A stretch of 64,000 nucleotides of DNA from Allofranklinella schreckenbergeri (GTDB lineage: Bacteria; Pseudomonadota; Gammaproteobacteria; Burkholderiales; Burkholderiaceae_C): positions 124,001 through 188,000 of the forward strand of contig NZ_RDQM01000003.1 of the NCBI RefSeq assembly GCF_003703475.1. Direction: 5' to 3'. Numbering within the stretch: the first letter of the stretch is position 1; each line of letters opens with the position of its first letter. The notes under the pieces are model-generated. The model saw only the letters and a list, made by a program, of their open reading frames with translations, did no database searches and had not been told where the DNA came from. A program made the position numbers and the translations under genes. Below are positions 102 through 61,915 of the stretch, piece by piece.

Positions 102-172
102 AATTCAAATGGAAAAAATTATGCCTTGTTTTGGCATGATGGTTATGAAATGATTTTTTCTTTGATGTGTAA
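102..172 (+). repeat. Dispersed AT-rich intergenic element, copy R1
   Basis: Left end ATTCAAATGGAAAAA, core TGCCTTGTTTTGGCATGAT, right end TTTTTTCTTTGATGTG. It lies between the partial upstream gene and the ECF sigma factor gene. It belongs to the 19-copy family described in the findings. Confidence 0.8.
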
Positions 173-313
173 ATAAACGATGGCCTCCACTCCCGATCTC
201 CACCAAGCATGTGCGCATCAGGGGCAAGCCCTGCAGACAAAGGCCGGGTTGGTATGACCAGTGCCGCCACAGCGACCCGCCGCCCGGATCGCGCGCACTA
301 TCATCGCCGCCCT

Positions 314-928
314 ATGACAGCCCATCCCCCTTCCCAGCCTGCGGCGCTGGATGTGCAAGCCCTGGCCGATGCCTGGCGCCAGCCCATGTTGCGCTTTGCC
401 TTGTTGCACCTGCAACCGCCGGAAGAAGCCGAAGACGCCGTGCAAGACGCCTTGCTCGCTCTGTTGGGCGCCCAGCCCACAGCGCTCACGCAGGGCGATC
501 CGCGCCGCTACCTGTTTGGCATCCTCAAACACAAAATCACCGACCGCCTGCGCAGCAAATACCGCCCAGAGGTGCTCTACCAGGAAGCCTTTGAAGACGA
601 GCTGGACAATGTGCTGTTCGATGACCGCGCCCATTGGCATGAAGGCGTGGCGCCAGCCTTGTGGAACAACCCCGAAGGCCAATTGCAAAGCCAGCAGTTT
701 CTGGCCGTGGTCGATGCCTGCGTGCACCGCCTGCCAGCCAAAATCGCGCGTGTTTTCAGCATGAAAGAACTGCTCGAATGCGACGCTGCCGAAGTTTGCG
801 AAACCCTGGGCCTGAGTCGCGCCGATTACTGGCAGTGCATGAGCCGCGCGCGCAAGCAGCTGCAACTTTGCCTGAGCCAGCATTGGTTTGAACAACCCCC
901 ACCGCAGCAGAAAGGCCGCCAACCATGA
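314..928 (+). CDS. ECF-type RNA polymerase sigma factor
   Basis: This 204-residue protein has the two-domain ECF layout. Region 2 spans roughly residues 20-85 (acidic AEDAVQDALLALL followed by RRYLFGILKHKITDRLR), and region 4 with its helix-turn-helix spans roughly 140-195 (CETLGLSRADYWQCMSRAR). It would direct core polymerase to a small stress regulon. The stop overlaps the start of the next gene (ATGA at 925-928), which encodes a likely anti-sigma factor, so the two are translationally coupled. No good Shine-Dalgarno sequence decides the start. ATG 314 matches the usual ECF length, while ATG 254 or 209 would add a low-complexity extension. The paired architecture resembles the neisserial NMB2144/NMB2145 system, an association from memory rather than a search. 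Confidence 0.85.
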   Translation: MTAHPPSQPAALDVQALADAWRQPMLRFALLHLQPPEEAEDAVQDALLALLGAQPTALTQGDPRRYLFGILKHKITDRLRSKYRPEVLYQEAFEDELDNVLFDDRAHWHEGVAPALWNNPEGQLQSQQFLAVVDACVHRLPAKIARVFSMKELLECDAAEVCETLGLSRADYWQCMSRARKQLQLCLSQHWFEQPPPQQKGRQP

Positions 929-1137
929 AGTGCGCCCAATACATTTTCAAGCTCACCTCCGGCCAGCTGGAGCAGGCCAGCGCCAGCGAACGCATGGAAG
1001 CGGCCTTGCACCGCCTGGTGTGCCGCCCATGCCGCGACTTCACCCAAAACGATGCGGCATTGGATGCCATCCTGGACGCGTACAAAAGCCAATTGCAACA
1101 GCCGCAACCGCCGCCATCAGCCCCATCCCGGGAGTGA
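925..1137 (+). CDS. Small zinc-motif (ZAS-type) anti-sigma factor
   Basis: This 70-residue soluble protein has the motif HRLVCRPC (H-x3-C-x2-C, about residues 29-36), the signature of zinc-binding anti-sigma factors. It has no membrane segment, so it would act in the cytoplasm by binding the ECF sigma factor encoded immediately upstream. Its ATG overlaps the sigma stop codon, giving strong coupling and near-equal production. The C-terminus is a Gln/Pro-rich tail. The sensing signal cannot be read from sequence. Thiol or metal stress is plausible because of the Cys pair. Confidence 0.75.
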   Translation: MKCAQYIFKLTSGQLEQASASERMEAALHRLVCRPCRDFTQNDAALDAILDAYKSQLQQPQPPPSAPSRE

Positions 1138-1205
1138 GGGCAAGCCAGCCATGTGTGGGGCTTTGCCTTGGCCTGCTGCGCTCAAGAAGCGCATAAAAAG
1201 CGCGC

Positions 1206-1232
1206 AAAAAAGAAGCCGCCCGAAGGCGGCTT
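1206..1232 (-). terminator. Intrinsic terminator of tRNA-Leu
   Basis: On the minus strand an 8-bp stem (AAGCCGCC / GGCGGCTT) closes a UUCG tetraloop and is followed by CTTTTTT. It lies 40 bp beyond the tRNA 3' end. On the plus strand it could also weakly end the anti-sigma transcript. Confidence 0.85.
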
Positions 1233-1271
1233 TCTAAGAGGAATTTCCATTTTGCGTAGAAATTCAATGGA

Positions 1272-1356
1272 TGGTGCCGGAGGCCGGAATCGAACCGGCA
1301 CGCCTCGCGGCGGCGGATTTTGAGTCCGCTGCGTCTACCAATTTCACCACTCCGGC
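1272..1356 (-). tRNA. tRNA-Leu (anticodon CAA)
   Basis: The minus strand folds as a class II tRNA of 85 nt including an encoded CCA. The acceptor stem GCCGGAG pairs with CTCCGGC. The anticodon arm is GCGGA-CTCAAAA-TCCGC, giving anticodon CAA. There is a long variable arm and a standard GGTTCGATTCC T-arm. An open reading frame starting at 1271 on the plus strand reads through this tRNA and must not be used as the cysM start. Confidence 0.97.
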
Positions 1357-3296: not shown

Positions 3297-3371
3297 CCAA
3301 ATCAAAAGATTTTTTGCTTTATGCGTATATTGCCGAAATAGGGTGATTTATTTTCCTATTGAATGGTAATT
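3297..3371 (-). repeat. Dispersed AT-rich intergenic element, copy R2
   Basis: Read on the minus strand it gives CCTATTTCGGCAATAT as the core and ends in ATCTTTTGATTTGG. It lies between the convergent Nudix-TusA and PaaK-like genes. Confidence 0.75.
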
Positions 3372-12039: not shown

Positions 12040-12487
12040 GCTTGATCTCCGTGCCCTTGTGCTCCACGGAATGGCTGCCGAGCATTGCCGCCATTCCTGC
12101 CTTGTCGGCCTGTTTGCATTTGCATGACAGACCGCGCTTGATGAGATGGCGCGCATGGTATCGGCAACTTTGACGCTTTAGTGTCCAGTCGACGACATTT
12201 TTGGGTAAACCCTATAGAGGGCTATCCCTTGGGTGGAGGGGCTGGTTGGGCGCAGTCGTCCCTCATGCGGCAGGCGGGAAATGGGTTCAATGTGTTTTGT
12301 TACAATTCAAATGTAAAATTGATTTGAATACCCTATTGCCTAAACAAGAAAATATTTTTGTCTATTGATTTGTAATAAAAAGAGGGTGCAGCGTTTTTGG
12401 GCATTTCGCGCGTTGGGCTTTGCACTGGGCGGCCGACAGGCGGCTGCGGCTGCCGGGCGGCAATGATGCGGGGATAATCGTGCCCCC
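12040..12487. other. Divergent intergenic region, ligase/ABC operon versus aroC
   Basis: These 448 bp without a gene hold the promoter side of the minus-strand ligase/ABC operon, a short run of nested dyads around 12203-12221 (GGGTAAACCC overlapping CCCTATAGAGGG), and repeat copy R3 at 12302-12377. No convincing small gene or RNA is visible. The dyads are only 4-bp arms and are offered as possible operator sequence at low confidence. Confidence 0.5.
12302..12377 (-). repeat. Dispersed AT-rich intergenic element, copy R3 (diverged)
   Basis: Read on the minus strand: ACAAATCAATAGACAAAA, then CTTGTTTAGGCAATAGGG, then TTTTACATTTGAATTG. It is a diverged copy, the only one lying between clearly divergent genes. 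Confidence 0.65.
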
Positions 12488-13555: not shown

Positions 13556-13561
13556 GGTATT

Positions 13562-13644
13562 CCAAATCAATGTGTTGAAAGAAAAAGCCTTTCGGCATGG
13601 TGGTCATGCCGAAAAGCTTTTTTCTTTTTCCTTTGATTGGTAAT
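13562..13644 (+). repeat. Dispersed AT-rich intergenic element, copy R4 (hairpin-forming)
   Basis: The ends AAATCAATGTGTTGAAAG and TTTTTCCTTTGATTGG match the family, and the core TTTCGGCATG is present. Unlike the others, the core is followed by its own inverted copy, making a strong terminator. Confidence 0.75.
13582..13630 (+). terminator. aroC terminator formed by repeat R4
   Basis: The stem is 10 bp of TTTCGGCATG / CATGCCGAAA (13590-13599 / 13605-13614), one mismatch, then GC and five A-T pairs. The loop is GTGGT, and T-rich sequence follows. The A-run on the left arm would make it active on the minus strand as well. Confidence 0.85.
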
Positions 13645-13700
13645 TGGCGTTGTATTCCAGGCATGCCCCCGGATAAATACAGGGTAATTTTTCGTGATCT

Positions 13701-17241: not shown

Positions 17242-17410
17242 AGCGTCCCTGCGTGGTCCGTCTTTGCCCTTGCCGTGGCGCAGGGGTGCGGGTTGCTGTG
17301 CGCCTCTTGCGCAGCAGCCCTATTTGATATTTCCGTTTCACTGATTGCGATGGCGGTTTGGCGCTTTCGCGGTGTTGCCGCGCGCGATTTTCTCCGGCTT
17401 AGTCATTTTT

Positions 17411-17488
17411 GCATATCAAAAGAAAAAATTAAATGCTATTTAGGCATATCTGTATTGAAATAAATTTTCTTTTGTTTTGAAATTCAAT
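17411..17488 (+). repeat. Dispersed AT-rich intergenic element, copy R5
   Basis: Left CATATCAAAAGAAAAAATT, core GCTATTTAGGCATATC, right AATTTTCTTTTGTTTTGAAA. It ends about 25 bp before the candidate operator of the Sit operon. Confidence 0.7.
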
Positions 17489-19550: not shown

Positions 19551-19620
19551 TCAATCAAAGGAAAACTTTCTTGTTTTATATCAAGCCGTAATAGGTATAT
19601 TTTCATTCCTTTGATTTGTA
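19551..19620 (-). repeat. Dispersed AT-rich intergenic element, copy R6, inside the Sit operon
   Basis: Minus-strand reading: AAATCAAAGGAATGAAAA, CCTATTACGGCTTGATA, GTTTTCCTTTGATTGA, with near-perfect inverted ends. It separates sitB from sitC by about 100 bp in an otherwise overlapping operon. Confidence 0.85.
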
Positions 19621-19644
19621 GAAAAGGTGATCTTGGGGAGGGCG

Positions 19645-22696: not shown

Positions 22697-22765
22697 TACA
22701 TCAAAGTAAAATCAATTTGATGTTCATCATGCCTAAAAATGCATGTATTTTTTCTTTTTGATTGA
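22697..22765 (-). repeat. Dispersed AT-rich intergenic element, copy R7
   Basis: Minus-strand reading: CAATCAAAAAGAAAAAAT, TTTTTAGGCATGATGAAC, GATTTTACTTTGATGT. It lies just beyond the heme receptor stop codon. Confidence 0.75.
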
Positions 22766-22770
22766 AAAAA

Positions 22771-28263: not shown

Positions 28264-28283
28264 ATGCTGAACACGTTTCCAAT

Positions 28284-28354
28284 TGTAAATCAAGGGAATA
28301 AAAATATGCCTGTTTCGGCATGATGGGTATGAAGTGAATTTTCCTTTGATTTAA
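28284..28354 (+). repeat. Dispersed AT-rich intergenic element, copy R8
   Basis: A near-consensus copy: GTAAATCAAGGGAATAAAA, TGCCTGTTTCGGCATGAT, AATTTTCCTTTGATTTAA. It lies between the MCE gene and its accessory lipoprotein gene. Confidence 0.9.
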
Positions 28355-30753: not shown

Positions 30754-30820
30754 CCAGATCAAAAAAAACTCCATGGCTTGATGGATTTGCCATGGAGGGG
30801 TGATTTTTTTGCTTGATGAT
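30754..30820 (+). repeat. Dispersed AT-rich intergenic element, copy R9 (diverged, hairpin)
   Basis: The ends AGATCAAAAAAAACTCC and TTTTTTTGCTTGATGATG and the inner GGCTTGATGGATTT fit the family. An inner inverted repeat CTCCATGGC / GCCATGGAG makes it a likely terminator for thiD. Confidence 0.55.
30768..30813 (+). terminator. thiD terminator within repeat R9
   Basis: CTCCATGGC pairs with GCCATGGAG across an 11-nt loop; GGGTGATTTTTTTG follows. It sits between convergent thiD and the TRAP binding-protein gene. Confidence 0.6.
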
Positions 30821-30951
30821 GGGTATTTTCAGGGTCAAGCCTTGGCCCTGGCGGGTAGGCGCTTGCCATGCAAGCTCCGCTTTGCGTGGCAAGGCCCTCT
30901 ATGCAATGGCCACAATGGCCAGCGCTTGGGGCGCGGCCTGGGCAAGGCTGT

Positions 30952-34492: not shown

Positions 34493-34562
34493 CAGATCAA
34501 TGGTGATTCAAGGTTGTGGCGTATCAAGCCATAACGGGGCGATTCTTTTGCTTTTTGATGGG
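34493..34562 (-). repeat. Dispersed AT-rich intergenic element, copy R10
   Basis: Minus-strand reading: CATCAAAAAGCAAAAGAAT, CCCCGTTATGGCTTGATA, CACCATTGATCTGG. It is head-to-head with R11, 7 bp away. Confidence 0.75.
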
Positions 34563-34569
34563 TTTTTAT

Positions 34570-34643
34570 TGTAAATCAAAAGGCAAAAAAATATCCTGTT
34601 TATGGCTTGATATGCGTAAATTTGATTTTACTTTGATGTGAAA
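34570..34643 (+). repeat. Dispersed AT-rich intergenic element, copy R11
   Basis: GTAAATCAAAAGGCAAAAAA, ATCCTGTTTATGGCTTGAT, TTTTACTTTGATGTGAAA. It is back to back with R10 between dut and the alpha/beta hydrolase gene. Confidence 0.85.
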
Positions 34644-36693: not shown

Positions 36694-36768
36694 ATACAAT
36701 TCAAGAGAAATTTGAATTATTGCCCATATTGCCGAAATGTCGTTATTTTATTTCTTTTTGATTTGTAA
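36694..36768 (-). repeat. Dispersed AT-rich intergenic element, copy R12
   Basis: Minus-strand reading: CAAATCAAAAAGAAATAAAA, GACATTTCGGCAATATGGGC, TTTCTCTTGAATTGTA. It lies between the dehydrogenase gene and upp. Confidence 0.75.
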
Positions 36769-36795
36769 AAATAACCTGTTTCAGCCCCTTCAGCC

Positions 36796-44100: not shown

Positions 44101-44173
44101 TTCAATCAAAAAGAAAAATGACTTTATTTCTAACTTGCCTAAATGGCAAAGTTTTGTTTCTTTTTGATTTGCA
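44101..44173 (-). repeat. Dispersed AT-rich intergenic element, copy R13, inside the BMP operon
   Basis: Minus-strand reading: CAAATCAAAAAGAAACAAAA, TTTGCCATTTAGGCAAGTTA, TTTTTCTTTTTGATTGAA. The ends form a 13-bp perfect inverted repeat (AATCAAAAAGAAA / TTTCTTTTTGATT). It separates the ATPase and permease genes. Confidence 0.85.
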
Positions 44174-44215
44174 ATTGAATGCCATCGAGCAGCGCGAAAA
44201 GGGTTCACAAGAGGG

Positions 44216-46998: not shown

Positions 46999-47005
46999 TT
47001 ATTTT

Positions 47006-47078
47006 TCATATCGAAAAGCAAAAAAATGGCCTTGCTATGGCTTGTTGTATGGCTATGCTGTTTTACTTTGATGTGTAA
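47006..47078 (+). repeat. Dispersed AT-rich intergenic element, copy R14
   Basis: CATATCGAAAAGCAAAAAAA, GCTATGGCTTGTTGTATGG, TTTTACTTTGATGTGTAA. It is the first of a tandem pair between convergent queF and mmsB. Confidence 0.75.
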
Positions 47079-47094
47079 TACATGAATTTCTTTT

Positions 47095-47168
47095 TATATT
47101 TCAAAGGAAATAAAATTGCATTGTTTCGGCTTGATGGTTCAGGGGTTGGGTTTCCTTTGATGTGAATA
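47095..47168 (+). repeat. Dispersed AT-rich intergenic element, copy R15
   Basis: TATTTCAAAGGAAATAAAA, GCATTGTTTCGGCTTGATGG, GGGTTTCCTTTGATGTGAA. Second of the tandem pair, 16 bp after R14. Confidence 0.88.
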
Positions 47169-47181
47169 ATCATGCTGCATG

Positions 47182-47217
47182 AAAAAAGCCCTGCGCTGGC
47201 TTCCAACGCAGGGCTTT
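47182..47217 (-). terminator. mmsB terminator
   Basis: An 11-bp stem AAAGCCCTGCG / CGCAGGGCTTT with an 11-nt loop and a T-run on the minus strand, 30 bp after the mmsB stop. Confidence 0.85.
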
Positions 47218-47247
47218 GTCATGGCAAAGGCCGATGGGCTTTGCTGA

Positions 47248-48144: not shown

Positions 48145-48200
48145 GAGAGTCTCCTTGGAAAGGGTTGTTGAGAGTTGAGGGAAAAAGGGGTGAAAGAGCG

Positions 48201-49048: not shown

Positions 49049-49073
49049 GCGGCGGGGCAGCGGCTGCGTTGGC

Positions 49074-50234: not shown

Positions 50235-50320
50235 GGAGTGTCTCCTTGGGTTGTTGTGGTTTGAGGGATGCGTTGGTTTTTCAGTCGCTGCGGCTGGCCC
50301 GGTCTCTCCAGCCTACCGGC

Positions 50321-50773: not shown

Positions 50774-50813
50774 GGGCGCAAAAAATCTTCATCGCAATGG
50801 GCATCGCGTGCGC

Positions 50814-51209: not shown

Positions 51210-51222
51210 GGCGGTGAAGCGG

Positions 51223-51534: not shown

Positions 51535-51619
51535 CGGCAAATCCTGCGGGCATGGCAATGCGGGGCATGCATGATGGCAAATGCGGTGGATGCGGGCACA
51601 CAGGCGTGCCGTGCACCCA

Positions 51620-51654
51620 CCGCAAACGGCCAGCAACTTTGGGGTTGCTGGCCG
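51620..51654 (-). terminator. mmsA hairpin terminator
   Basis: A perfect 11-bp stem CGGCCAGCAAC / GTTGCTGGCCG with a 6-nt loop, followed on the minus strand by TTTGCGG. The T-run is short, so termination may be partial, which would allow read-through to the small genes. Confidence 0.65.
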
Positions 51655-51667
51655 CTGCAGCCCGTGC

Positions 51668-53188: not shown

Positions 53189-53267
53189 GCGTTGTCTCCA
53201 GAGTAGGCAAAACGGATGCGGTGCGCGGGATTGCGACCGCCACCCGTAAGCGGCGCTATCTTAATTT

Positions 53268-53319
53268 GCAAATTTGCTCCATCAAGTGGAGATGTTGCAA
53301 TGTTTCTTTGCAAATTTGC
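53268..53319. promoter_or_regulatory. Twin GCAAATTTGC operator sites upstream of mmsA
   Basis: Two perfect 10-bp palindromes GCAAATTTGC (53268-53277 and 53310-53319) are spaced exactly 42 bp start to start, four helical turns. Such an arrangement fits co-operative binding or looping by a dimeric regulator of valine catabolism. Confidence 0.55.
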
Positions 53320-53371
53320 ACAAAGGAGATTGCCCTGAAATACGGCGAGCCAAGCTTCAGGGAGGATAAAT

Positions 53372-53442
53372 TACCAATCAAAGGAATAAAAATTGCCATG
53401 TTTCGGCTTTATATACATCAAGTGATGATTCCTTTGATTGGA
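53372..53442 (+). repeat. Dispersed AT-rich intergenic element, copy R16
   Basis: CCAATCAAAGGAATAAAAAT, GCCATGTTTCGGCTTTAT, GATTCCTTTGATTGGA. The ends form a perfect 12-bp inverted repeat (AATCAAAGGAAT / ATTCCTTTGATT). Confidence 0.9.
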
Positions 53443-53462
53443 TGAATTGGGTATTGGGCGCG

Positions 53463-54212
53463 CTACTTCAGCCAGCGGGCAAGGCTGCGCAGCAGCAGGG
53501 ATAGACCTGCGGACCAGAGTTCGTCCTGGAACATCTCCGTCCACCCCGGCTCCTCGCGGCGGCGCTGGCGCTCCCGTTCGCGGTTTTGCTGGTGCATGCG
53601 CTCCTTGGCCAGCACCACGGCGGCGCTGGTTTCATCCACACGGGCGTGCGGATCGACCGGCGCGGGCGCTTGCTGGTAGCGCTCCAGCGCTTTTTCCACC
53701 GCTTGCGGATCCAGCAGCGAAAAGGCCGAGCGGCAATACGGGCAGGCATGGTCGCGGCGCAAATCGACCGAAGCGCCGCAACTGCTGCAATGGATAGTGC
53801 GCACCTTCTGTGCCAGCCGTTCAATCTCCGCCGGGGCCAGGTGGCGCACAAAGCCCTTTTCCACCATGAAGGAGGAAAAAGTGGAAAACCGCCCGTGCGT
53901 CGCGCAGCGGTACACGATGTAGCTGCCGCTGATGGTGCGATCGCTGCCGCGCGCCAGCGGCTCGGCGCAGCGCGGGCAATGCATGCGTTCCCTGAGCGGG
54001 CTGTGCGGCGCATCGCGGTGGGCGTGCAGGGTTTTGAACAGCGCCAACACGCTGCGCGCACTCAATTGCAGGCTTTCCAGCCGGTCAAACCAAATGCCGT
54101 GGCAGGCAAAGCACAAATCCAGCTCCACCGGGCCGTTGCGGGCCTCCAGGCTGAGTGCTTGCATGGGCTGGCGGCAGGAAGGGCAGGCGGGGGTGTGCAA
54201 GGGAGTGGTCAT
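53463..54212 (-). CDS. Multi-zinc-ribbon (TFIIB-type zinc finger) protein of unknown function
   Basis: This 249-residue protein has three Cys-pair groups: CPSC and CFAC (residues 9-36, the zf-TFIIB pattern), CPRC with a later C-x-x-H (about 79-105), and CSSC with CPYC (about 142-162). A helical, Arg/Gln-rich C-terminus and a short hydrophobic end (AGLSLLLRSLARWL) follow. Zinc binding is likely; no function is established. It follows repeat R16 on the opposite side of the mmsA promoter. Confidence 0.75.
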   Translation of the reverse strand: MTTPLHTPACPSCRQPMQALSLEARNGPVELDLCFACHGIWFDRLESLQLSARSVLALFKTLHAHRDAPHSPLRERMHCPRCAEPLARGSDRTISGSYIVYRCATHGRFSTFSSFMVEKGFVRHLAPAEIERLAQKVRTIHCSSCGASVDLRRDHACPYCRSAFSLLDPQAVEKALERYQQAPAPVDPHARVDETSAAVVLAKERMHQQNRERERQRRREEPGWTEMFQDELWSAGLSLLLRSLARWLK

Positions 54213-54423
54213 GGTGTGAAGGGGGCGGAAAGTTCATAACACGCTCGGATGCAGCCTGCGCCCCAAATGCTTGAATCGGAATGGCACAGCCTGCAATAAG
54301 GGTTGATTTTGCAGCAGTTTTCAACCATTTATTCAAAATATTCACCAATCCGTGGAAGGGGAATTCATTAACATTGAATGGTTTTGTTTTTGGTTGTCGC
54401 AGGTTTTTTTGGTTGAATATCGC

Positions 54424-55338
54424 ATGATGGATTCAGGCATGGGGTGGGTTTCTCTGGGCTTGCTGGCGGGCATTATTCTGGGTACTTATGATTTTTTGAC
54501 GAAGATTGCCTTGAAGGAAAAAGGCGTTCTGGAGGTTGTTTTCTGGTGCTCCGTGCTCGGGGGGCTGATGTGGTTGCCGTTTTTTATTCTCCCGACATCA
54601 TATAAAGATGCTTTGCAGGCATTTCATTTGTCACCGCAGGATTTGACGGTGGCGCAGCAGATGGCCGTATTGCCCAAATCCATTTTGATGGTGGCGACCT
54701 GGGTGCTTTCTTATTATTCGGTCAAGTTCTTGCCCCTTTCCATTTCGGCGGGAGTCAGGGCCAGCGGCCCGTTATGGACGGCTTTGGGCGCCATGCTGTT
54801 TTTGTCAGAGGTTTTGAGTTGGACGCAGTGGCTGGGGCTTGCCGTGGCGATGGCCTCTTATTATCTGTTTTCCCTTATAGGGAAAAAGGAGGGGATTTCC
54901 TTTGGGCGCAATGTGTGGGTTTTGTGCATGCTGGCAGCCACCTTGATGTCTTCGGCCAATGCCTTGTACGACAAATACATTCTCTCGACTTTGCATCTGG
55001 ATTTGGCGGCGGTGCAGGCGTATTCGGCGCTTCAACGCGGCGGGTTGGCTTTGTTGCTGCTGCCCTGGATTTTCAGAGAGGTGGAGGCATTAAGCCTTTT
55101 GCGCAGGAATTGGGCGATCCCCGCAATCGCCTTTGCTTATGTGCTGGCTGAATATATTTACCTGGCAGCCGTGCGTCAGGATGGGGCAATGATTTCCGTC
55201 ATCTCGGTTTTGCGCCGCACGAATTTGGTGATGGTTTTCCTGCTTTCGGCCATTTTCTTTCGGGAGCTTTACATTCCCCAGAAAGTGGTGGCGATTTTGG
55301 GTGTTTTGCTGGGCATTGCATTAACCGTTTTGCACTGA
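54424..55338 (+). CDS. EamA/DMT-family transporter in a lower-GC segment
   Basis: This 304-residue protein has ten hydrophobic segments in two EamA repeats (GLLAGIILGTYDFLTKIAL, VRASGPLWTALGAMLFLSE, VISVLRRTNLVMVFLLSA). It is probably an exporter. Base composition is visibly lower in GC than its neighbours, with AT-ending codons such as TTT, ATT and AAA frequent. The start is uncertain: ATG 54424 fits the family length, while a GTG at 54352 lacks a ribosome site. It converges with the LysR gene, one base apart from the stop codons. Confidence 0.75.
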   Translation: MMDSGMGWVSLGLLAGIILGTYDFLTKIALKEKGVLEVVFWCSVLGGLMWLPFFILPTSYKDALQAFHLSPQDLTVAQQMAVLPKSILMVATWVLSYYSVKFLPLSISAGVRASGPLWTALGAMLFLSEVLSWTQWLGLAVAMASYYLFSLIGKKEGISFGRNVWVLCMLAATLMSSANALYDKYILSTLHLDLAAVQAYSALQRGGLALLLLPWIFREVEALSLLRRNWAIPAIAFAYVLAEYIYLAAVRQDGAMISVISVLRRTNLVMVFLLSAIFFRELYIPQKVVAILGVLLGIALTVLH

Positions 55339-55339
55339 T

Positions 55340-56215
55340 TTATCCGCTGGCAGCAATGGAGCGAATCCATTGAATGACAGTTTCTCCATAGCGCGACAAC
55401 ATGGCGCGCTCCGAGGCCAGCAGAAAATAGGATTGCGCGGAGGGAATGGCCACGTCGGAAATGCGAACGAGGCTGCCGTCTTGAAGCAGGCGCTGGACGA
55501 GTGAGCGCCTGCCCAGCGCAATACCTTGCAGATTCAGGGCTGCATCAAGCAAAAATCCGGTATCGGAATAGGTGATATTGCGCTGGAGGGCAGAAACAGG
55601 GATGCCAGCGGCTTGCATCCAGGGTTGCCATGGTTGGCGGCTGTGCGTGAGCAGGTCTGCACGTTCGAAAAGCTCGCAGAGACTGCCGTGGCCGAGTTGC
55701 TGGAGATATCGGGGGGCGGCAACGGGAAACCACTCGTCTTTGAGCAATAGCTCGCAATAATGCGCTTGCGGGGTTTTGCTGGAAAACCGGATGGCAATAT
55801 CGGCTTCGCCTTGGTCGATATTGGCGATTTGGGTGGTTGGATGCAGGGTGATGGAGATGCGGCTGTGGGTTTTATGAAAATTCGTTAATGCGGGGAGTAA
55901 ACAAAACCTTGCAAAAGACGGGAGCGCGCTGATGCGCACCACATCGCGCTCCAGCGTCAGGTTGCTGAAGGCGGTTTCGAGGCTGGCCAGCGATGCGCGC
56001 ACTTGATGGTGTAAATAAGCGCCTTCGGGGCTGAGGGTGACGTTGCGGGTGGTGCGATGGAACAGCGTGGTTTTCAGGATTTGCTCAAGTTCCCGGATTC
56101 TGTGGCTGATGGCGCTGTTGGAAAGGTGCAGTTCCTGGCTGGCAGCGGTGAAACTTTGCAGCCGTGCGACGGCATCGAATGCGACGATCAGGTGAATGGG
56201 GGGAATATTGCGCAT
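55340..56215 (-). CDS. LysR-family transcriptional regulator (GcvA-like group)
   Basis: This 291-residue regulator has an N-terminal winged helix-turn-helix (residues 1-65: LIVAFDAVARLQSFTAASQE, NSAISHRIRELEQILKTTLF) and a periplasmic-binding-like effector domain (ISALPSFARFCLLPALTNFH, then SYFLLASERAMLSRYGETVI). Like the converging transporter gene it is lower in GC than the surroundings, so the two may have arrived together and may form a regulator-exporter pair. The effector is unknown. Confidence 0.87.
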   Translation of the reverse strand: MRNIPPIHLIVAFDAVARLQSFTAASQELHLSNSAISHRIRELEQILKTTLFHRTTRNVTLSPEGAYLHHQVRASLASLETAFSNLTLERDVVRISALPSFARFCLLPALTNFHKTHSRISITLHPTTQIANIDQGEADIAIRFSSKTPQAHYCELLLKDEWFPVAAPRYLQQLGHGSLCELFERADLLTHSRQPWQPWMQAAGIPVSALQRNITYSDTGFLLDAALNLQGIALGRRSLVQRLLQDGSLVRISDVAIPSAQSYFLLASERAMLSRYGETVIQWIRSIAASG

Positions 56216-56271
56216 ATTTGCGGGGAAATATGGAATGCCTGATTTTCACGCGGGCTGCGCGGTTTTGCAGT

Positions 56272-57546
56272 TCATGTTTCTTCCGGCAAAAACGATTGCT
56301 GCAAATCGCTGAGGAAATCAAAACCGCGCGCGGTGGGGCGGATGTGGCCGGGGTGGGGTTGCTCGAGCAGGCCGCGGGCGATGGCTTGCTCAATGGCCGG
56401 TTGCACGCTGGAGAGGGGCAGGCCGGTGCGGGCGTGGAAGTCTTGCAGTGCAAAGCCCTGGCGCAGGCGCAGGGCGCACAGCATGTATTCAAAGGGCAGT
56501 TCGCGGCGGGGGATGTCGCTCTCTTGCGCGATGGGGGCGCCTTGCAGGGCGGCGGCGGTGTAGCGCTGGGGGTCGCGCAGGCGCACCTGGCGCACGATGC
56601 GGTGGGCGAAGCTGAGTTTGCTGTGCGCGCCGGCGCCGATGCCCAGGTAGTCGCCAAATTGCCAGTAGTTGAGGTTGTGCTGGCAGGTGTGGCCGCCTCG
56701 GGCGTAGGCGGAGACTTCGTAGCGTTCCAGCCCTGCTGCGGCGGTGGCAGCGGTGATGGCGTCGAGCATGTCATAGGCCAGGTCGTCGTCGGGCAGGGCG
56801 GGGGGCGGGTATTTGGCGAAGTAGGTGTTGGCTTCGATGGTGAGGTGATAGACGGACAGGTGCGGCGGTTGCAGGGCCAGGGCGGTGTGCAGGTCCTGGG
56901 CAAAAGCGGCCATGTCCTGGCCGGGCAGGGCGTACATGAGGTCGAGGTTGAAGGTCTCGAAGGCGTCGCGGGCTTCTTCCACGGCGGCGAGGGCCTGGGC
57001 GCGGTTGTGGATGCGGCCCAGGCGTTGCAGCAGGGTATCGTTAAAGCTTTGCACGCCGATGGACAGGCGCGTGACGCCTGCGGCGCGGTAGGCGGCGAAG
57101 CGGTCCGTCTCGAAGGTGCCGGGGTTGGCTTCCAGGGTGATTTCGCAGCCGGGCAGCAGCCGCAGACGCGCACGCACGCTGGCGAGCAGGCTGTCGATGT
57201 GCGCGGCAGAGAACAGGCTGGGGGTGCCGCCGCCGATGAAGATGCTGATGACCTGGCGGCCCCAGATGAGAGGCAGGGCGGCGTCCAGATCGGCTTCGAG
57301 CGCTTGCAAATAGCGCCCGATGAGGGCGGGATCAAGGGCCGACGCCGGCGTTTGTGCCCGAGGGCTGGCGTGGGAGTTGAAGTCGCAATAAGGGCATTTG
57401 CGCACACACCAGGGCAGGTGGATGTAGAGCGCCAGCGGCGGCAGCTCGTGCAGTTGCAAGATGCCGGGGCGCAGGTAGTGCTGGATGCCGGCGGGGCGCT
57501 GGCCGGATGCCGCCGACTCGGCGCCAACGATGCTGGGAAGGGGCAT
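56272..57546 (-). CDS. hemW: Radical SAM heme chaperone HemW
   Basis: This 424-residue protein has the radical SAM CxxxCxxC cluster C47, C51, C54 in WCVRKCPYCDF, followed by FIGGGTPSLFS and SIGVQSFNDTLLQRLGRIHN. The C-terminal HemW domain (GAGAHSKLSFAHRI) distinguishes it from coproporphyrinogen oxidase HemN. It inserts heme into respiratory proteins. The N-terminal extension (about 35 residues before LALYIHLPWC) is longer than usual, so a later start is possible. In many betaproteobacteria it follows rdgB; here pldA is adjacent. Confidence 0.9.
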   Translation of the reverse strand: MPLPSIVGAESAASGQRPAGIQHYLRPGILQLHELPPLALYIHLPWCVRKCPYCDFNSHASPRAQTPASALDPALIGRYLQALEADLDAALPLIWGRQVISIFIGGGTPSLFSAAHIDSLLASVRARLRLLPGCEITLEANPGTFETDRFAAYRAAGVTRLSIGVQSFNDTLLQRLGRIHNRAQALAAVEEARDAFETFNLDLMYALPGQDMAAFAQDLHTALALQPPHLSVYHLTIEANTYFAKYPPPALPDDDLAYDMLDAITAATAAAGLERYEVSAYARGGHTCQHNLNYWQFGDYLGIGAGAHSKLSFAHRIVRQVRLRDPQRYTAAALQGAPIAQESDIPRRELPFEYMLCALRLRQGFALQDFHARTGLPLSSVQPAIEQAIARGLLEQPHPGHIRPTARGFDFLSDLQQSFLPEET

Positions 57547-57570
57547 GCGGCAGTTTTTGGTGTTTATTTT

Positions 57571-57644
57571 TACAAATCAAAAGGAAAATAAATATGCTTT
57601 TTTCGGCATGATAGGTTTGAAGTGAGTTTTCCTTTGATGTGATT
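57571..57644 (+). repeat. Dispersed AT-rich intergenic element, copy R17
   Basis: ACAAATCAAAAGGAAAATAA, TATGCTTTTTTCGGCATGAT, AGTTTTCCTTTGATGTGA. A near-consensus copy between hemW and pldA. Confidence 0.9.
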
Positions 57645-57646
57645 GG

Positions 57647-58924
57647 TCAAAAATCGAGCAGGCTTAGCCCGACGGAGAAAACGGTGCGGCGACTGTTGTA
57701 GTCGATCAGGCTGTCGCCATAGCCGTGGAACAGGCCGGTGACCAGGCGCAGGTTGCTTTTGCCGCCCGCGAAGCCTTGGCCCAGGGCGTGGCTCCATTCG
57801 AGTCTGGCCGAGCCGCGGGCTTTGTCGCGCATGGCGTGGCGCAGCGTCAGTTGCAGGCTGTTGCGGCTGCTGAGTTCCCAGAGGCTGATGAGTTCGGCGC
57901 GGCCGATGGTGTCGCTGATCTCGGGGTTGTCGTCTTTGATGTTTTTCTCGCGCTGGCGCTTCCAGAAGCGCGCTTGCACAGTCCAGTGGGGGGTGAGGTC
58001 GGCGCCGAGCATGGCGTAGTAGCGGTTCCAACTGCGCGAGAGGGGGATGCTTTGGCCGTTGGATTGGTGGTTGATGCCCAGGCCCGCATAGCGCAGGCGC
58101 ACGCCGCCGGGCAGCGACCATTCGAGCGGATAGACGTAGATCAGCTCCGGCTCGTGGTCGGTGTTGCGAAAGGGGCGCGAGAGATCGCCGTTGAAGGCTT
58201 GCCAGCTTGCGCCCAGGGTGTAGCCAAACCAGAGCGAGTCGCGCTTGCTGGGGTGGCCAAAGGTGAGCAGGCCGCTGGCGAGCTTGGTGCGCACCGACAG
58301 TTGCAGGCGCAGTTCGTGGCGCTGGTAGTCGCGCCACTCGGCCAGGCCGTGCGAGGGGCTGAGGGGCTGGCGGTTGATGCGGTTGCTCCAGGCCGCGCCA
58401 ATGGTCAGGGGGCGGTAGCCGCGAAAGCGGAAGTTGCCGCAATCGGTATCGGTGTTCAGCTCCCAAAAGCGCGAGGTGCGGTCGAAGGCGGGATTGCGGC
58501 AGCCGTCGTTGCTGGCAATGATGAGCTGGGCGGGCGAGGGGGCGTTGGTGTCTGCCCCGGCAGCAGTGGTGTGGGTGGGGATTGGGGTGTTTTCGGCGCT
58601 ATCAGCGCTATCGGCATGAAGGGGCGCGTCTTGCGGGGCGGTTGTGGCTGCCACAGGCGCAGTGGGGGCCGATTCGGGCCGCTGGCCGCTGGCCCAGCGG
58701 TCGTAACAGGCCAGGCGCTGGGTGTCGTCCGGCAGGGCGGCGCAGGCTTGCCAGCGCGCAGCGCCGGGGAGGGAGGGCGTTGGGTTGCTGGTTGGGGCGG
58801 CGGCCAGCGCGGGCAGGGTGAACAGGCCCAGGCTGAGCGCGGCAGGCAGCGCAAGGGGCCAGCGCAGGCGTGGCGAGGCGGGTTGTCCAGCTGGGGTGTT
58901 TTCCAAATCGAAAAGGGTTTTCAT
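57647..58924 (-). CDS. pldA: Outer-membrane phospholipase A
   Basis: This 425-residue OMPLA enzyme hydrolyses phospholipids that reach the outer leaflet. The catalytic site YAGLGINHQSNGQS holds H286 and S288, and the third residue N300 is in SRSWNRYY; the spacing equals that of the E. coli enzyme (H142, S144, N156). An N-terminal hydrophobic segment (LALPAALSLGLFTLPALA) is the likely signal, preceded by about 20 charged residues. A Pro/Thr/Ala-rich insert (about 85-130) is unusual for the family. Confidence 0.9.
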   Translation of the reverse strand: MKTLFDLENTPAGQPASPRLRWPLALPAALSLGLFTLPALAAAPTSNPTPSLPGAARWQACAALPDDTQRLACYDRWASGQRPESAPTAPVAATTAPQDAPLHADSADSAENTPIPTHTTAAGADTNAPSPAQLIIASNDGCRNPAFDRTSRFWELNTDTDCGNFRFRGYRPLTIGAAWSNRINRQPLSPSHGLAEWRDYQRHELRLQLSVRTKLASGLLTFGHPSKRDSLWFGYTLGASWQAFNGDLSRPFRNTDHEPELIYVYPLEWSLPGGVRLRYAGLGINHQSNGQSIPLSRSWNRYYAMLGADLTPHWTVQARFWKRQREKNIKDDNPEISDTIGRAELISLWELSSRNSLQLTLRHAMRDKARGSARLEWSHALGQGFAGGKSNLRLVTGLFHGYGDSLIDYNSRRTVFSVGLSLLDF

Positions 58925-58971
58925 TTTTGAAGCTTGAAGACTGGGCGGCGCGCGTGCAGGCGGCTATGCAT

Positions 58972-59451
58972 TCAGGGCGCGGGTGTTGCGGCGGCTGTAT
59001 TGGCGCAGTGATCGCATGTGCCATACAGCGTCAATTCATGGGCTTTGAGCACGAAGCCCTGGGGCAGCAGGGCGGCGAAGGTTTCGTGGCAGCCGCCGAC
59101 GTCGAACACCTTGCCGCAGCTTTCACAGCAGAAATGGTGGTGGTGCTCATGGCCTTTGCAGGACAGTTCGTAGTACAGCCTGTCGCCTGGCAGGGGTACG
59201 AGGCTGAGTTCTCCAGCCTCCACCATGGTTTTGATGTTGCGATAGACGGTGGCGATGCCCAGGCGGGGGACGATTTTCTGGGCCGCTTGCAGTATTTCCG
59301 GCGGGGAGAGCGGGCGGCCTTCGGCGGCCATGGCGGCGCGAATGGCAGCGCGTTGGCGGGTGGAGCGCTCTCTTGGGCGCGCTTCGGGGCTGGCTGGGTG
59401 CGCCATAGGGTCGCAGGAGTGCGATGGGCAGGTGTGAGGGGTGGGTTTCAT
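58972..59451 (-). CDS. Fur-family metalloregulator (Fur/Zur/PerR type)
   Basis: This 159-residue regulator has the Fur layout: a winged helix domain (RQRAAIRAAMAAEGRPLSP, IATVYRNIKTMVEAGEL), a His-rich regulatory site GHEHHHHFCCESCGKVFDV, and a Cys-rich C-terminus (CDHC). Two C-x-x-C pairs form a structural zinc site. Whether it senses zinc, iron or peroxide cannot be decided here. Start ATG 59451 is used; ATG 59406 (removing 15 residues with CPSHSC) is an alternative, and neither has a clear ribosome site. Confidence 0.85.
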   Translation of the reverse strand: MKPTPHTCPSHSCDPMAHPASPEARPRERSTRQRAAIRAAMAAEGRPLSPPEILQAAQKIVPRLGIATVYRNIKTMVEAGELSLVPLPGDRLYYELSCKGHEHHHHFCCESCGKVFDVGGCHETFAALLPQGFVLKAHELTLYGTCDHCANTAAATPAP

Positions 59452-59499
59452 GCAAGCGGGTGGGGGAAATCGGTTGCAGTCGGGGGCGATGGCGGCGCT

Positions 59500-60192
59500 T
59501 CAGAGGGGCGTATCTGGCGTCTGGTCGGCGATGTCGTTCAACTCATCGGCCATGGCTTCGTAAACGCTTTTGCGGATGGCAAATTCCAGCTCTTTGCGAA
59601 TGGTGGGCAGCAGGGCGCGTGTTTGGCGTTCGACGACGGTGGCGATGACTTCACCGATGCGCGCTGCCATGAGGCTGTCAACGCGCTGAACGACGCGATG
59701 CACCAATTGCTCCTCAAAATCGGGCGGAAAAAGCGCGCGGATGTGGGCGGTGGCGTAAGCGGCTGGGGCCACGGCGCTCTGGGGTGGGGCCGCTGGGGGT
59801 GCTTGATCGGCATGGTTGATCCAGTCGCCCAGCTCCAGCTTGTCCCAATCCATGGCAATGGGCGCTGGCTGTACGGGGGCCGGTTGTGCGGGCGCTGGCG
59901 GCGGTATGGGCTCATCGGTCACCACCGCATTGAGGGTGGGGATGTAGGGCGGCGGCGGGGCTTCTGGCTGCGCGGGGGCATCGGGGCGGCGCAGCAAGCG
60001 GCCGATTTGCGGCGCTTGCAGGGCGTCTGAGGCGGGGGCGGATGCAAAAGAGGGCGCGTCGGCAGGCTCGCGCTTTGGGGCTGGCTCTTTGCCCACGCCT
60101 TCGACCACTTCCGTCAGCGTGGGCACAAAGCGCACGGCGCGCACGGCGGGCACGGCGGCCTGGCCGTCTGCGCGCTTGCTGGATTCATCCAT
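59500..60192 (-). CDS. Hypothetical protein, Pro/Ala-rich with helical C-terminus
   Basis: The 230-residue protein has a disordered Pro/Ala-rich first half (PAQPAPVQPAPIAMDW) and a helical second half (LFPPDFEEQLVHRVVQRVDS, VVERQTRALLPTIRKELEF) of unknown function. The start at 60192 overlaps the end of holC by 8 bp, so it is co-translated. Similar linked genes occur next to holC in related bacteria, but no function is known to me. Confidence 0.65.
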   Translation of the reverse strand: MDESSKRADGQAAVPAVRAVRFVPTLTEVVEGVGKEPAPKREPADAPSFASAPASDALQAPQIGRLLRRPDAPAQPEAPPPPYIPTLNAVVTDEPIPPPAPAQPAPVQPAPIAMDWDKLELGDWINHADQAPPAAPPQSAVAPAAYATAHIRALFPPDFEEQLVHRVVQRVDSLMAARIGEVIATVVERQTRALLPTIRKELEFAIRKSVYEAMADELNDIADQTPDTPL

Positions 60193-60637
60193 GGGGGTTG
60201 GCCTCCAAATCATGTCCGTGCAAGGCGTAGCCGCGCTGCTGGTAATAGCGCCAGCGCGCGCGTGCGCGCTGGCGGTCGGCCTCGTCGTGGCGCAGCACGA
60301 GTTCATAGACGTGTTCAAAACGGCTGAAGGCGGGCTGTACTTCGTCCCACAGGGTGAGCAAGGTGTTGGGGTGCTCGGGCGGCTCGGCTTCCATATTCGC
60401 GCACAGCCAGATGGGCGATGGCGCCTGGGGGGGCTGGGCGTTGGTGGGGGCTGGCAGCCAGTTGTGGGCGACAAAGTCGCTGGCATTCATGTGCCAGAGC
60501 ATGTCGTCAAGCGTTTGCAATGTGGGGTCAGGCGCTGTCAGCAAGATGGGGCGCGCTTGCATCAAGGCTTTGCGCGCCAAGCGGCAGGCAAAGGAGAGCT
60601 TGTCAGGTACGTTGAAGTAGAAATGCACGTCCGTCAT
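60185..60637 (-). CDS. holC: DNA polymerase III chi subunit
   Basis: This 150-residue protein links the polymerase III clamp loader to single-strand-binding protein. Family segments are VHFYFNVPDKLSFACRLARK near the N-terminus, then LDDMLWHMNASDFVAHNWL and a Pro-rich NTLLTLWDEVQPAFSRFEHV. The start ATG 60637 gives MTDVHFYFN. The next gene overlaps its end. Confidence 0.88.
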   Translation of the reverse strand: MTDVHFYFNVPDKLSFACRLARKALMQARPILLTAPDPTLQTLDDMLWHMNASDFVAHNWLPAPTNAQPPQAPSPIWLCANMEAEPPEHPNTLLTLWDEVQPAFSRFEHVYELVLRHDEADRQRARARWRYYQQRGYALHGHDLEANPHG

Positions 60638-60747
60638 AAGGGGGCGATTATCGGTCAGCGCTGGCTGCTGCATTGGCGCCCTGGCCGGCTTTGCGGTGTT
60701 GCGGGCAAAAAAAGGGAAAATGCAAAGTTTTGTGACCAGGTTCCCCC

Positions 60748-61737
60748 ATGTTTGCTGCACGCCGCCTTCGGGCTTTGCTTGATCCGTTCACGCTGATTTT
60801 GATTGGCGTGGTGTTGCTCGCCACGCTTTTGCCGGCGCAAGGCCGGGCCGAGGAGGGGTTTCGCTGGCTCACGCACGCTGCCATTGCTTTGCTGTTTTTC
60901 ATGCACGGGGCCAAGCTGTCGCGCCAGCAGGTGATCGCGGGGATGACGCATTGGCGGCTGCATTTGGTGATTTTTGCGTGCACGTTTGTGCTGTTTCCGC
61001 TGCTGGGCTTGCTGCTCAAGCCGCTGGCCGAGCCGCTGGTGGGGCCGTCGCTGTACATGGGCATTTTGTATATGTGCGCGCTGCCAGCGACTGTGCAATC
61101 GGCCATTGCGTTCACCTCGCTGGCGCGCGGCAATATCCCTGCGGCCATTTGCAGCGCGGCGGCTTCGAGTTTGATCGGGATTTTTCTCACCCCGCTGCTG
61201 GTGCTGTGGCTGCTGGGCGCGGGCGGCGATCAGGTCGCTGGCGGGGGCACGCTGGAGGCGATTCGCAAAATCGTGGTGCAACTGCTGATCCCCTTCGTGG
61301 CAGGGCAAATCGCCCGGCGCTGGATTGGCGACTGGGTGGCGCGCAACCGACACTGGCTCAAAAATGTGGATCAGACTTCCATCGTGCTGGTCGTCTATAC
61401 CGCCTTCAGCCAGGCCGTCAACCAGGGGCTGTGGGCGCAGGTGCCAGCCGTCAATCTGGTGGCGTTGCTGGTGCTGTGCTGCGTCATGCTGGCTATCGTG
61501 CTGGCGCTGGTGTGGTTTGTTGCCAAGGCGCTGGGCTTTGACTTGGCCGACCGCATCACCATTTTGTTTGGCGGATCGAAAAAAAGCCTGGCGACGGGCG
61601 TGCCCATGGCCCAGGTTTTGTTTTCGGCCAGCTCCATGGGGGCGATGCTGCTGCCCATCATGATCTTTCACCAAATCCAGCTCATGGTCTGCGCCGTGCT
61701 GGCGCAGCGTTTTTCGCAACGGCCGGAAGATGAATGA
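60748..61737 (+). CDS. Bile acid:sodium symporter family transporter (SLC10A7/YfeH-like)
   Basis: This 329-residue protein has about ten membrane segments. FFMHGAKLSRQQVIAGMTHW, YMCALPATVQSAIAFTSLAR and the conserved GGSKKSLATGVPMAQVLF are marks of the SLC10A7/YfeH subgroup. Substrate is unknown (organic anion or bile-acid-like). It is divergent from holC over 110 bp and is followed by repeats R18 and R19. Confidence 0.85.
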   Translation: MFAARRLRALLDPFTLILIGVVLLATLLPAQGRAEEGFRWLTHAAIALLFFMHGAKLSRQQVIAGMTHWRLHLVIFACTFVLFPLLGLLLKPLAEPLVGPSLYMGILYMCALPATVQSAIAFTSLARGNIPAAICSAAASSLIGIFLTPLLVLWLLGAGGDQVAGGGTLEAIRKIVVQLLIPFVAGQIARRWIGDWVARNRHWLKNVDQTSIVLVVYTAFSQAVNQGLWAQVPAVNLVALLVLCCVMLAIVLALVWFVAKALGFDLADRITILFGGSKKSLATGVPMAQVLFSASSMGAMLLPIMIFHQIQLMVCAVLAQRFSQRPEDE

Positions 61738-61751
61738 TGCGGATCGGGAAT

Positions 61752-61825
61752 TACATATCAAAAAGAAAATAAATCACCCTGTTTCGGCTTGATGGGCAAT
61801 GGTGTGGTTTTCTTTTGATGGATAA
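61752..61825 (+). repeat. Dispersed AT-rich intergenic element, copy R18
   Basis: TACATATCAAAAAGAAAATA, CACCCTGTTTCGGCTTGATG, GTTTTCTTTTGATGGATAA. First of a tandem pair between convergent genes. Confidence 0.85.
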
Positions 61826-61841
61826 TGCTGTAAATTGGATT

Positions 61842-61915
61842 TTGTGAATCAAAGGCTTGAAAAATGCCGTTTTATGGCTTGATAGGCATGATGCGCCATT
61901 TCCTTTGATTGATAA
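61842..61915 (+). repeat. Dispersed AT-rich intergenic element, copy R19
   Basis: TGTGAATCAAAGGCTTGAA, TGCCGTTTTATGGCTTGATA, CATTTCCTTTGATTGATAA. Second of the tandem pair, 16 bp after R18. Confidence 0.85.

What the first reader, a model, noticed from the sequence alone, without database searches (positions are those of the whole stretch)
102..61915. Nineteen-copy dispersed family of ~75-bp AT-rich intergenic elements with inverted ends
The same element recurs at least 19 times in 64 kb (R1-R19), in both orientations (12 plus, 7 minus). Its layout is constant: left end AAATCAAARGAAAA, 8-10 A-rich bases, core close to TGCCTGTTTCGGCATGAT, 10-15 variable bases, right end TTTTCCTTTGATTTG. It is AT-rich in a GC-rich chromosome, never lies in a protein gene and codes for nothing. 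The ends change together in several copies (AAAGG with CCTTT in R15 and R16; AAAAAG with CTTTTT in R13), which suggests pairing or a shared recognition site is maintained. At about one per 3.4 kb, the density would imply many hundreds per genome if the window is typical. It resembles a MITE or REP-type family but I do not recognise the sequence, and no transposase or RAYT gene is nearby.
Basis: seen in the sequence. Interest (0 to 1): 0.88.

Follow-up and report, generated by a model that had tools for sequence, protein, structure and literature searches.

The report
Conserved 75-base palindrome repeated about 700-fold
One bacterial lineage carries roughly 700 copies of a short AT-rich palindrome, mostly just behind its genes; the copies no longer appear to move, yet the same letters in each have been kept since two sister species split, which suggests that the cell uses them.

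Summary
A matrix scan finds 19 copies in the window; a profile finds 218 in 864 kb sampled from this 2.82-Mb genome, so about 710 in all. The organism is related to Vandammella animalimorsus (Comamonadaceae). Sister species G005 has the same density. Of 399 family genomes searched, this one included, only two others match, with 3 and 1 hits.

The element is 74-75 bp: inverted arms (TTACAAATCAAAAGGAAA) around an asymmetric core (TTTYGGCA). It sits close behind stop codons, most often between convergent genes, in random orientation to the adjacent gene (69:70).

Of 58 sampled copies in regions shared with G005, 57 are in both. In 41 of these pairs well-conserved positions differ at 2.2% and poorly conserved ones at 26.7%; conservation among copies predicts divergence (Spearman -0.84). 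Copies look immobile and constrained where they sit. No RAYT was found; fragments are rare.

Best reading: a REP/MITE-like family that spread once and became a maintained DNA site at gene 3' ends. The binding protein is unknown. A new variant of a known kind.

The parts
97..167 (+). element copy 1 (71-nt coordinates; the full element runs about 3 nt further at its right end)
   Evidence: score 90.2; E 5e-16; present in G005
3300..3370 (-). element copy 2
   Evidence: present in G005
12306..12376 (-). element copy 3, upstream of aroC
   Evidence: present in G005; not seen in the 260 bases printed on either side of aroC in the other genus members looked at
13558..13645 (.). element copy 4, long hairpin variant (84 nt) directly after the aroC stop; orientation ambiguous; this copy alone resembles an intrinsic terminator
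17407..17477 (+). element copy 5, upstream of a znuA-like gene
19553..19623 (-). element copy 6, between ABC-transporter ATPase and ABC-3 permease genes (znuC-like, znuB-like)
22699..22769 (-). element copy 7, 3' of a TonB receptor gene
28281..28351 (+). element copy 8
30757..30827 (-). element copy 9 (divergent)
34496..34566 (-). element copy 10, back to back with copy 11
   Evidence: found in G005 by the model though below the later profile cut-off
34568..34638 (+). element copy 11
36699..36769 (-). element copy 12, between 3-hydroxybutyrate dehydrogenase and upp
44105..44175 (-). element copy 13
47003..47073 (+). element copy 14, directly 3' of queF; tandem with copy 15 at 90-bp spacing
47092..47162 (+). 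element copy 15
53369..53439 (+). element copy 16
57569..57639 (+). element copy 17, best match to the model
   Evidence: 70.4 bits
61750..61820 (+). element copy 18; tandem with copy 19 at 90-bp spacing
61840..61910 (+). element copy 19

Best explanation
The family was copied to several hundred intergenic sites in the ancestor of this species and its sister G005, probably by a transposase that I did not find. It has not visibly moved since. Each resident copy is now kept by selection as a site on double-stranded DNA. Two inverted arms (ATCAAA...TTTGAT) and a central asymmetric TTTYGGCA word, held at fixed distances, are bound as one complex by an unknown host protein. Because the sites sit just behind stop codons and between convergent genes, the likely role is marking or insulating transcription-unit ends, for example docking a nucleoid protein or topoisomerase as enterobacterial BIMEs are reported to do (recalled). 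Shown: copy density, lineage restriction within the genomes searched, sharing between sister species, position-specific constraint, placement, orientation neutrality. Inferred: spread by transposition, selection rather than another cause of the constraint, the protein, and its job.
For: Ortholog divergence is 2.2% at positions conserved in at least 90% of copies (16 of 738 sites) against 26.7% at positions under 60% conserved (230 of 861); Spearman -0.84 (41 pairs). Inside elements gaps are 0.5% of sites against 3.5% in flanking intergenic DNA, so length is held while letters vary. 57 of 58 sampled syntenic copies are shared, and 53 of 53 in the reverse direction. Placement: 51 of 76 convergent, 124 of 291 tandem and 19 of 90 divergent intergenic regions of at least 75 bp are occupied; orientation to the adjacent gene is 69 same, 70 opposite. 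The transcribed strand does not fold better than its complement (133 tandem copies, p 0.73), which argues against an RNA role. Of 218 profile hits 214 are near full length, 4 partial; relaxing to E 10 adds 5, the same number as in the reversed control.
Against: No binding protein was identified. Arms and core halves pair slightly better than shuffled halves, which a hairpin-based role would also predict, and the element's plus strand folds slightly better than its minus strand (p 0.005). Placement near stop codons could simply reflect the DNA where an insertion does least harm. Part of the contrast could come from mutation or exchange rather than selection: fast positions change more than flanks (0.116) or 4-fold sites (0.090), and the interior transition/transversion ratio (1.1) lies between intergenic (1.7) and paralogue (0.53) values. 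Two of 4 promoter-like matches in 46990-64000 overlap copies 17 and 18 (4 found, 3.1 expected).
Confidence: 0.5

Rival explanations
1. It works in RNA: the palindrome folds behind the stop codon in the 3' UTR and slows ribosome release or blocks exonucleases, as reported for E. coli REPs within about 15 nt of a stop codon.
For: In tandem gene pairs 74 of 134 copies lie less than 20 nt behind the upstream stop. Native arms pair better than shuffled arms. Mean folding z is -2.5 against mononucleotide shuffles. Passages of PMC12306157 describe REPs close to stop codons acting on translation.
Against: The transcribed strand is no more stable than its complement (p 0.73 for 133 tandem copies; p 0.93 for 78 near a stop). 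The most invariant letters (TTT.GGC, ATCAA) are conserved as letters, not as exchangeable pairs, and RNAalifold finds no consensus structure on 18 copies. Orientation is random although the core is asymmetric.
Confidence: 0.22
2. It is only a spent selfish repeat (MITE or REPIN-like) that is slowly decaying; its sequence pattern reflects what the lost transposase needed.
For: Inverted ends, lineage-restricted burst, absence at the 5 of 5 sites whose flanks could be matched in G008, and hundreds of copies that needed copying.
Against: Decay should hit all positions alike, but arm and core positions stay nearly fixed in resident copies between species. Fragments are rare.
Confidence: 0.17
3. Copies are kept alike by ongoing exchange (gene conversion) between copies rather than by selection.
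For: It would keep consensus positions constant and shuffle variable ones; fast positions diverge at 0.25-0.40 against 0.116 in flanks, and Ti/Tv is intermediate.
Against: Interior differences per ortholog pair run from 1 to 15 with a single broad peak (42 pairs), whereas random paralogues differ at 42% of 39 interior sites (about 16), so whole-interior replacement is not evident. Copies are only about 63% alike, poor substrates for homologous exchange. Fast 4-fold A/T sites (0.43-0.45) suggest the neutral rate may itself be high.
Confidence: 0.08
4. It is a bidirectional intrinsic transcription terminator.
For: Found at gene 3' ends, convergent pairs preferred. One window copy (13558) does form a strong stem followed by T-rich sequence.
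Against: Most window copies show no GC-rich stem followed by a U tract, and none of 21 terminator-like matches in 46990-64000 lies in one of the 6 copies there. Outside the elements, canonical terminators are not significantly rarer in regions with an element than in regions without (27 of 51 against 14 of 25 convergent, p 1.0; 26 of 124 against 46 of 167 tandem, p 0.22).
Confidence: 0.04

Closest known systems
REP / BIME (enterobacteria, Pseudomonas)
   Same: Many extragenic palindromic copies, mostly behind genes and between convergent or unidirectional ORFs (PMC3733652, abstract and passages seen).
   Different: REPs there are 20-40 bp with a GTAG or CGTC end; this is 75 bp, 29% GC, has an asymmetric conserved core, and no RAYT was found in the genome.
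REPIN (paired REPs with RAYT)
   Same: Two conserved inverted ends (71 bp between the two 16-mers in one group) around a less conserved middle whose length and folding matter (PMC3116915, passages seen).
   Different: No RAYT found, an extra conserved core in the middle, few fragments, and sharing between sister species at 57 of 58 sampled sites.
MITEs such as the Correia element
   Same: Short, non-coding, terminal inverted repeats, many copies in one lineage (PMC10969869, passages seen).
   Different: No target duplication stands out, the one multi-copy IS whose ends were read has other ends, and copies are constrained while resident.
Beta-proteobacterial repeat element, BRE
   Same: A short intergenic repeat (~90 bp) in Bordetella and Comamonadaceae, sometimes in tandem (PMC3110155, one section and passages read).
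   Different: Bordetella BREs average 69% GC and at most 29 copies per genome were listed; this is 29% GC with about 710 copies. BRE letters are not printed in the text seen, so no alignment was made.

Membership tests
REP/REPIN | RAYT (Y1 HUH) transposase in the genome | tested here: not met
   PF01797: 0 matches in G000 and G005; present in 5 of 10 genus members and 5 of 14 controls. G005 is only about 80% complete.
REP/REPIN | Extragenic palindromes, predominantly 3' of genes | tested here: met
REP/REPIN | GTAG or CGTC tetranucleotide at one end | tested here: not met
   Profiles of arms and flanks of 217 copies show no such tag
MITE | Terminal inverted repeats on a short non-coding unit | tested here: met
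   Left arm and reverse complement of right arm have nearly the same profile
MITE | Target-site duplication | tested here: inconclusive
   Best cases over several thousand length/offset combinations are 5 and 7 of 217 copies (6 bp, about 1 expected) and 31 of 217 (2 bp, 15 expected), at unrelated offsets; 5 matched sites in G008 too diverged to read junctions. Age could have erased it.
MITE | Autonomous relative with the same ends | tested here: inconclusive
   PF01609: 17 matches in two genomes, 12 fetched as loci; only the ends of the multi-copy IS were read, and they differ. Elements occur in 2 of the 12 loci but not at that IS's ends. PF13358 and PF00665 give no match; other transposase families were not searched.
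MITE | Insertion polymorphism between close relatives | tested here: not met
   57 of 58 sampled syntenic copies shared; the exception lies in a 1.3-kb indel that takes in about two thirds of a gene
Intrinsic terminator | GC-rich stem followed by U tract | tested here: not met
   Not a family feature, though the copy at 13558 has one
Known RNA family (Rfam 15) | Match at gathering score | tested here: not met
   Only two tRNAs reach it in the whole window; around copy 17 only an E 0.11 match outside the element and an E 3.4 match overlapping it
BRE | Sequence similarity to published BRE | not tested
   Sequence not printed in the text seen; GC content argues against it

The most novel reading that the evidence does not exclude
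A single bacterial lineage has built a genome-wide punctuation system: about 700 copies of a protein-organised 75-bp DNA site, one behind about half of the gene ends that face an intergenic gap (219 of 419 in the sample), made by an ancient burst of copying and since held by selection copy by copy, independent of transcription direction.
Probability: 0.3. Interest if true: 0.82.

Novelty: new variant of a known kind. Interest (0 to 1): 0.62.

Why it matters
Whether REP-like repeats are selfish or useful has long been argued (recalled), and active copying usually blurs the answer. Here copying appears to have stopped before two sister species split, so constraint can be read directly from the same copy in both, and it is strong and concentrated in arms and core. 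If a host protein is found, this would be a clear case of a repeat family recruited as chromosome or transcription-unit punctuation, testable by pull-down, ChIP and copy removal.

Tried and rejected
Intrinsic terminator: not a family feature, and canonical terminators are not significantly rarer beside the element; the copy at 13558 alone looks like one. Conserved RNA structure: RNAalifold predicts no pair on 18 copies; arm covariation exists but is small; no transcribed-strand preference. TA target duplication, suspected from TTACAAATC...GATTTGTAA: the right-end TA is weak. Parent insertion sequence: the multi-copy IS read here has other ends, although one of its copies lies about 35 bp from an element; a 1.3-kb insertion holding a copy proved to be largely a manC-like gene. 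Similar repeats in neighbours: a count of repeated 12-letter words in 14-54 kb from each of ten relatives was uninformative, because the same count showed nothing in the G000 control stretch, and of five G000 stretches tried later only one listed a word that could be the element's. Phage and plasmid origin: the exact core word in viral contigs gave 0 matches, a weak test; plasmid and phage searches gave 5 and 6 records covering under half the query at E 0.2-0.7. Hypermutation or positive selection in the spacers was considered and not claimed, because 4-fold A/T sites also change at 0.43-0.45. Published description: five paper searches (others listed rows of 9, 2,151, 40, 226 and 11 papers) listed none that by title or abstract start describes this repeat; they cover only the open PMC library.

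Limits: gene positions come from my own simple gene finder. G000 stretches were chosen by me after seeing the hit list, so density could be slightly biased. Only 58 of 218 sampled copies lay in regions that I could compare with G005. Rows dropped: one search used 51 of 53 pairs; one search kept 42 same-length pairs and one search used 41; one search used 188 of 217 copies for positional counts; one search compared only those 188; one search used 212. Flanks include coding DNA, those do not. One search searched lone arms and cores at a strict threshold (14 entries: 7 from two complete copies missed or cut by a stretch end, 2 one site on both strands, 5 single words); one search repeated this with the profile at E 10. 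Searches over more than 40 genomes use stricter filters that lose weak matches. G006 was matched to V. animalimorsus, and G001 to Lampropedia cohaerens, by contig coordinates shared records, not by a name in the handle.
Full report
What was checked. An iterated 71-position weight matrix on both strands returns 19 sites scoring 42-98 bits, then a gap to -5. Eleven are plus and eight minus; the copy at 13558 is a longer hairpin variant whose strand is ambiguous. A sequence-only model of 18 copies (R1) then scored 150 of 1462 first-look candidates in the whole genome, all 150 below E 1e-12, with the list full. To get a density I took stretches: a profile from the sampled copies finds 218 in 864 kb of this genome (G000) and 102 in 401 kb of its sister G005, both about 25 per 100 kb, and none in the reversed G000 sequence. 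That implies about 710 copies in 2.82 Mb.

Whose genome. Chorismate synthase from the window is closest (90%) to Vandammella animalimorsus, then Corticibacter populi and Lampropedia cohaerens, among named records (which may leave out the window's own record). G005 is 99% identical at that protein and aligns to the window at 94-96% DNA identity in its long blocks.

Distribution. Among 10 genus members (G000 included) G000 and G005 fill the list; G006 has 3 matches, G008 and G009 one each, the other five none at E 0.001; at E 10 the three have 5, 3 and 2. Of 399 family genomes only G000, G006 and G008 match, one genus of 141 (G005 and G009 had no row with a match there). G006's copies lie in two segments that are 96.5% and 90% identical to G000. 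G008, close to G006 at acnD (98% protein identity), lacks the prpC-acnD copies, and its prpC is only 79% identical to that of G006. For the gene beside G006's other copy, G000 has a 95% identical protein and G008 only a 30% one. So G006's copies look imported with genes from this lineage, most clearly at prpC.

Anatomy. Consensus over 188 copies of 74-75 nt: TTACAAATCAAAAGGAAA, an A-rich stretch, CCTTGTTTYGGCATGATGG, about 11 variable bases, TTTTCCTTTGATT and a looser right end. The left arm and the reverse complement of the right arm have nearly the same profile. ATCAA and TTT.GGC are near invariant. Total length is 74 or 75 in 188 of 217. Same-strand neighbours closer than 100 bp lie 90 or 92 bp apart in six cases and 82 in one; in the five pairs measured the members are only 48-65% alike, so these are not recent duplicates. 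GC is 29%.

Placement. Of intergenic regions of at least 75 bp, 51 of 76 convergent, 124 of 291 tandem and 19 of 90 divergent hold a copy. In tandem pairs the median distance to the upstream stop is 16.5 nt and to the downstream start 73.5 nt (n 134). Of 419 gene 3' ends followed by at least 85 nt, 219 have a copy in that gap (both genes of a convergent pair count). Next to a stop codon the element points with the gene 69 times and against it 70 times. Five of 124 copies overlap a predicted CDS by more than 15 nt, each by 16-24 nt at its 3' end.

Immobile. Of 218 sampled copies 58 lie in regions comparable with G005. Of these, 53 align and are recognised in both, 3 more sit between alignment blocks with a copy in G005, one (34496) is aligned and found there by R1 though below the profile cut-off, and one lies in a 1.3-kb indel that takes in about two thirds of a manC-like gene; from the G005 side 53 of 53 are shared. 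Among 188 copies the closest pair is 87% identical and the median nearest relative 76%. Flanks show no convincing target duplication. At the 5 sites where flanks could be matched within 500 bp, all in G008, no element was there; in one of them G008 has other DNA in a longer gap. Of the 218 hits 214 cover at least 65 profile columns and 4 cover 45-64; relaxing to E 10 adds 5 (4 partial), and the reversed sequence also gives 5, so remnants are rare.

Constrained. Between ortholog pairs, positions conserved in at least 90% of copies differ at 16 of 738 sites (2.2%), intermediate positions at 185 of 1464 (12.6%), and positions under 60% at 230 of 861 (26.7%); rank correlation -0.84, p 7e-21 (41 pairs). 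ATCAA positions differ at 0-3% and TTT.GGC at 0-5%, apart from the free base in the core at 40%. Gaps are 0.5% of element sites against 3.5% in flanking intergenic DNA and 1.5% in intergenic regions without an element. A spent repeat should decay evenly. The fast positions exceed element-free intergenic (0.070) and 4-fold sites (0.090), but 4-fold A/T sites change at 0.43-0.45, so neutral change may explain them; exchange between copies is not excluded.

DNA or RNA. Native arms pair better than arms drawn from different copies (-9.73 against -8.58 kcal/mol, 0 of 5000 permutations, 212 copies), and so do the core halves, but not the spacers. Some arm types travel together, for example AATAGG with TTCCTATG (4 of 4) and AAAGGA with TTCCTTTG (14 of 32). 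The effect is small, single-position mutual information shows no clear arm-to-arm pattern, and RNAalifold finds no consensus pairs. If an RNA hairpin were selected, the transcribed strand should fold better than its complement; in 133 tandem copies it does not (p 0.73), nor in the 78 closest to a stop (p 0.93). With random orientation and conserved letters, this favours a site on double-stranded DNA. The element's own plus strand folds slightly better than its minus strand whatever the transcription (-14.6 against -13.7, p 0.005); I have no explanation.

Mobility machinery. No RAYT match in G000 or G005. The DDE_Tnp_1 search gave 12 matches in G000 and 5 in G005; 12 loci were fetched, and the multi-copy IS of about 850 bp among them ends in AGARCCTGTTCAAAATCTTTT, unlike the element. 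Two of the 12 loci hold elements, in one case about 35 bp outside an IS end, which looks like chance. DDE_3 and rve give nothing. Other transposase families were not searched, so the copying engine is unknown.

Verdict. The interpretation as a REP/MITE-like family is right in kind but incomplete: the family no longer appears to move and is maintained. I commit to a protein-bound DNA site at transcription-unit ends at 0.5, because the protein and its job are inference. It differs from REP and REPIN in size, composition, central core and absence of a detectable RAYT, and from BRE in composition and number.

Noticed in passing
window 53260-53330 and 63385-63420 (related words near 39475-39500): A TTTGCAAATTTG-like palindromic word recurs in these AT-rich intergenic stretches outside the element and could be an operator shared by a few loci.
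   Followed up: no
L153:8818-8985 (G006) with L212 (G000) and L211 (G008): The prpC-acnD region of G006 is 96.5% identical to G000 across the gap with two elements, while G008 has close acnD, only 79% prpC and no elements: a likely recombination import that carried elements between lineages.
   Followed up: yes
pooled G001 loci L042, L160, L164: Repeated words (AAGGCGTAACCC, ATGGCGGGTTAC) turn up in loci of a genome that has two Y1 transposase hits and look like a real RAYT-REP system; which locus holds them was not checked.
   Followed up: no
G000 sample: L190 17176/17266, L142 17399/17489, L141 10047/10139, L192 1788/1880, window 47002/47092 and 61750/61840: Same-strand tandem elements sit 90 or 92 bp apart although, in the five pairs measured, the members are no more alike than random copies, so the spacing itself seems kept.
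   Followed up: partly
G000 sample, gene ends facing the element's left end: Distances from stop codon to the left end fall on 2 modulo 3 in 36 of 69 cases (23 expected); not seen for the right end. Counted by hand after the fact.
   Followed up: no
window 13558-13645: The copy directly behind aroC is a long hairpin (MFE about -27 kcal/mol), unlike most of the family and terminator-like; the G005 ortholog is at the same place with many changes.
   Followed up: partly
window 54271-55338: An AT-rich stretch around a weakly scoring ORF at 54649-55338 stands out from its surroundings and may be foreign DNA.
   Followed up: no
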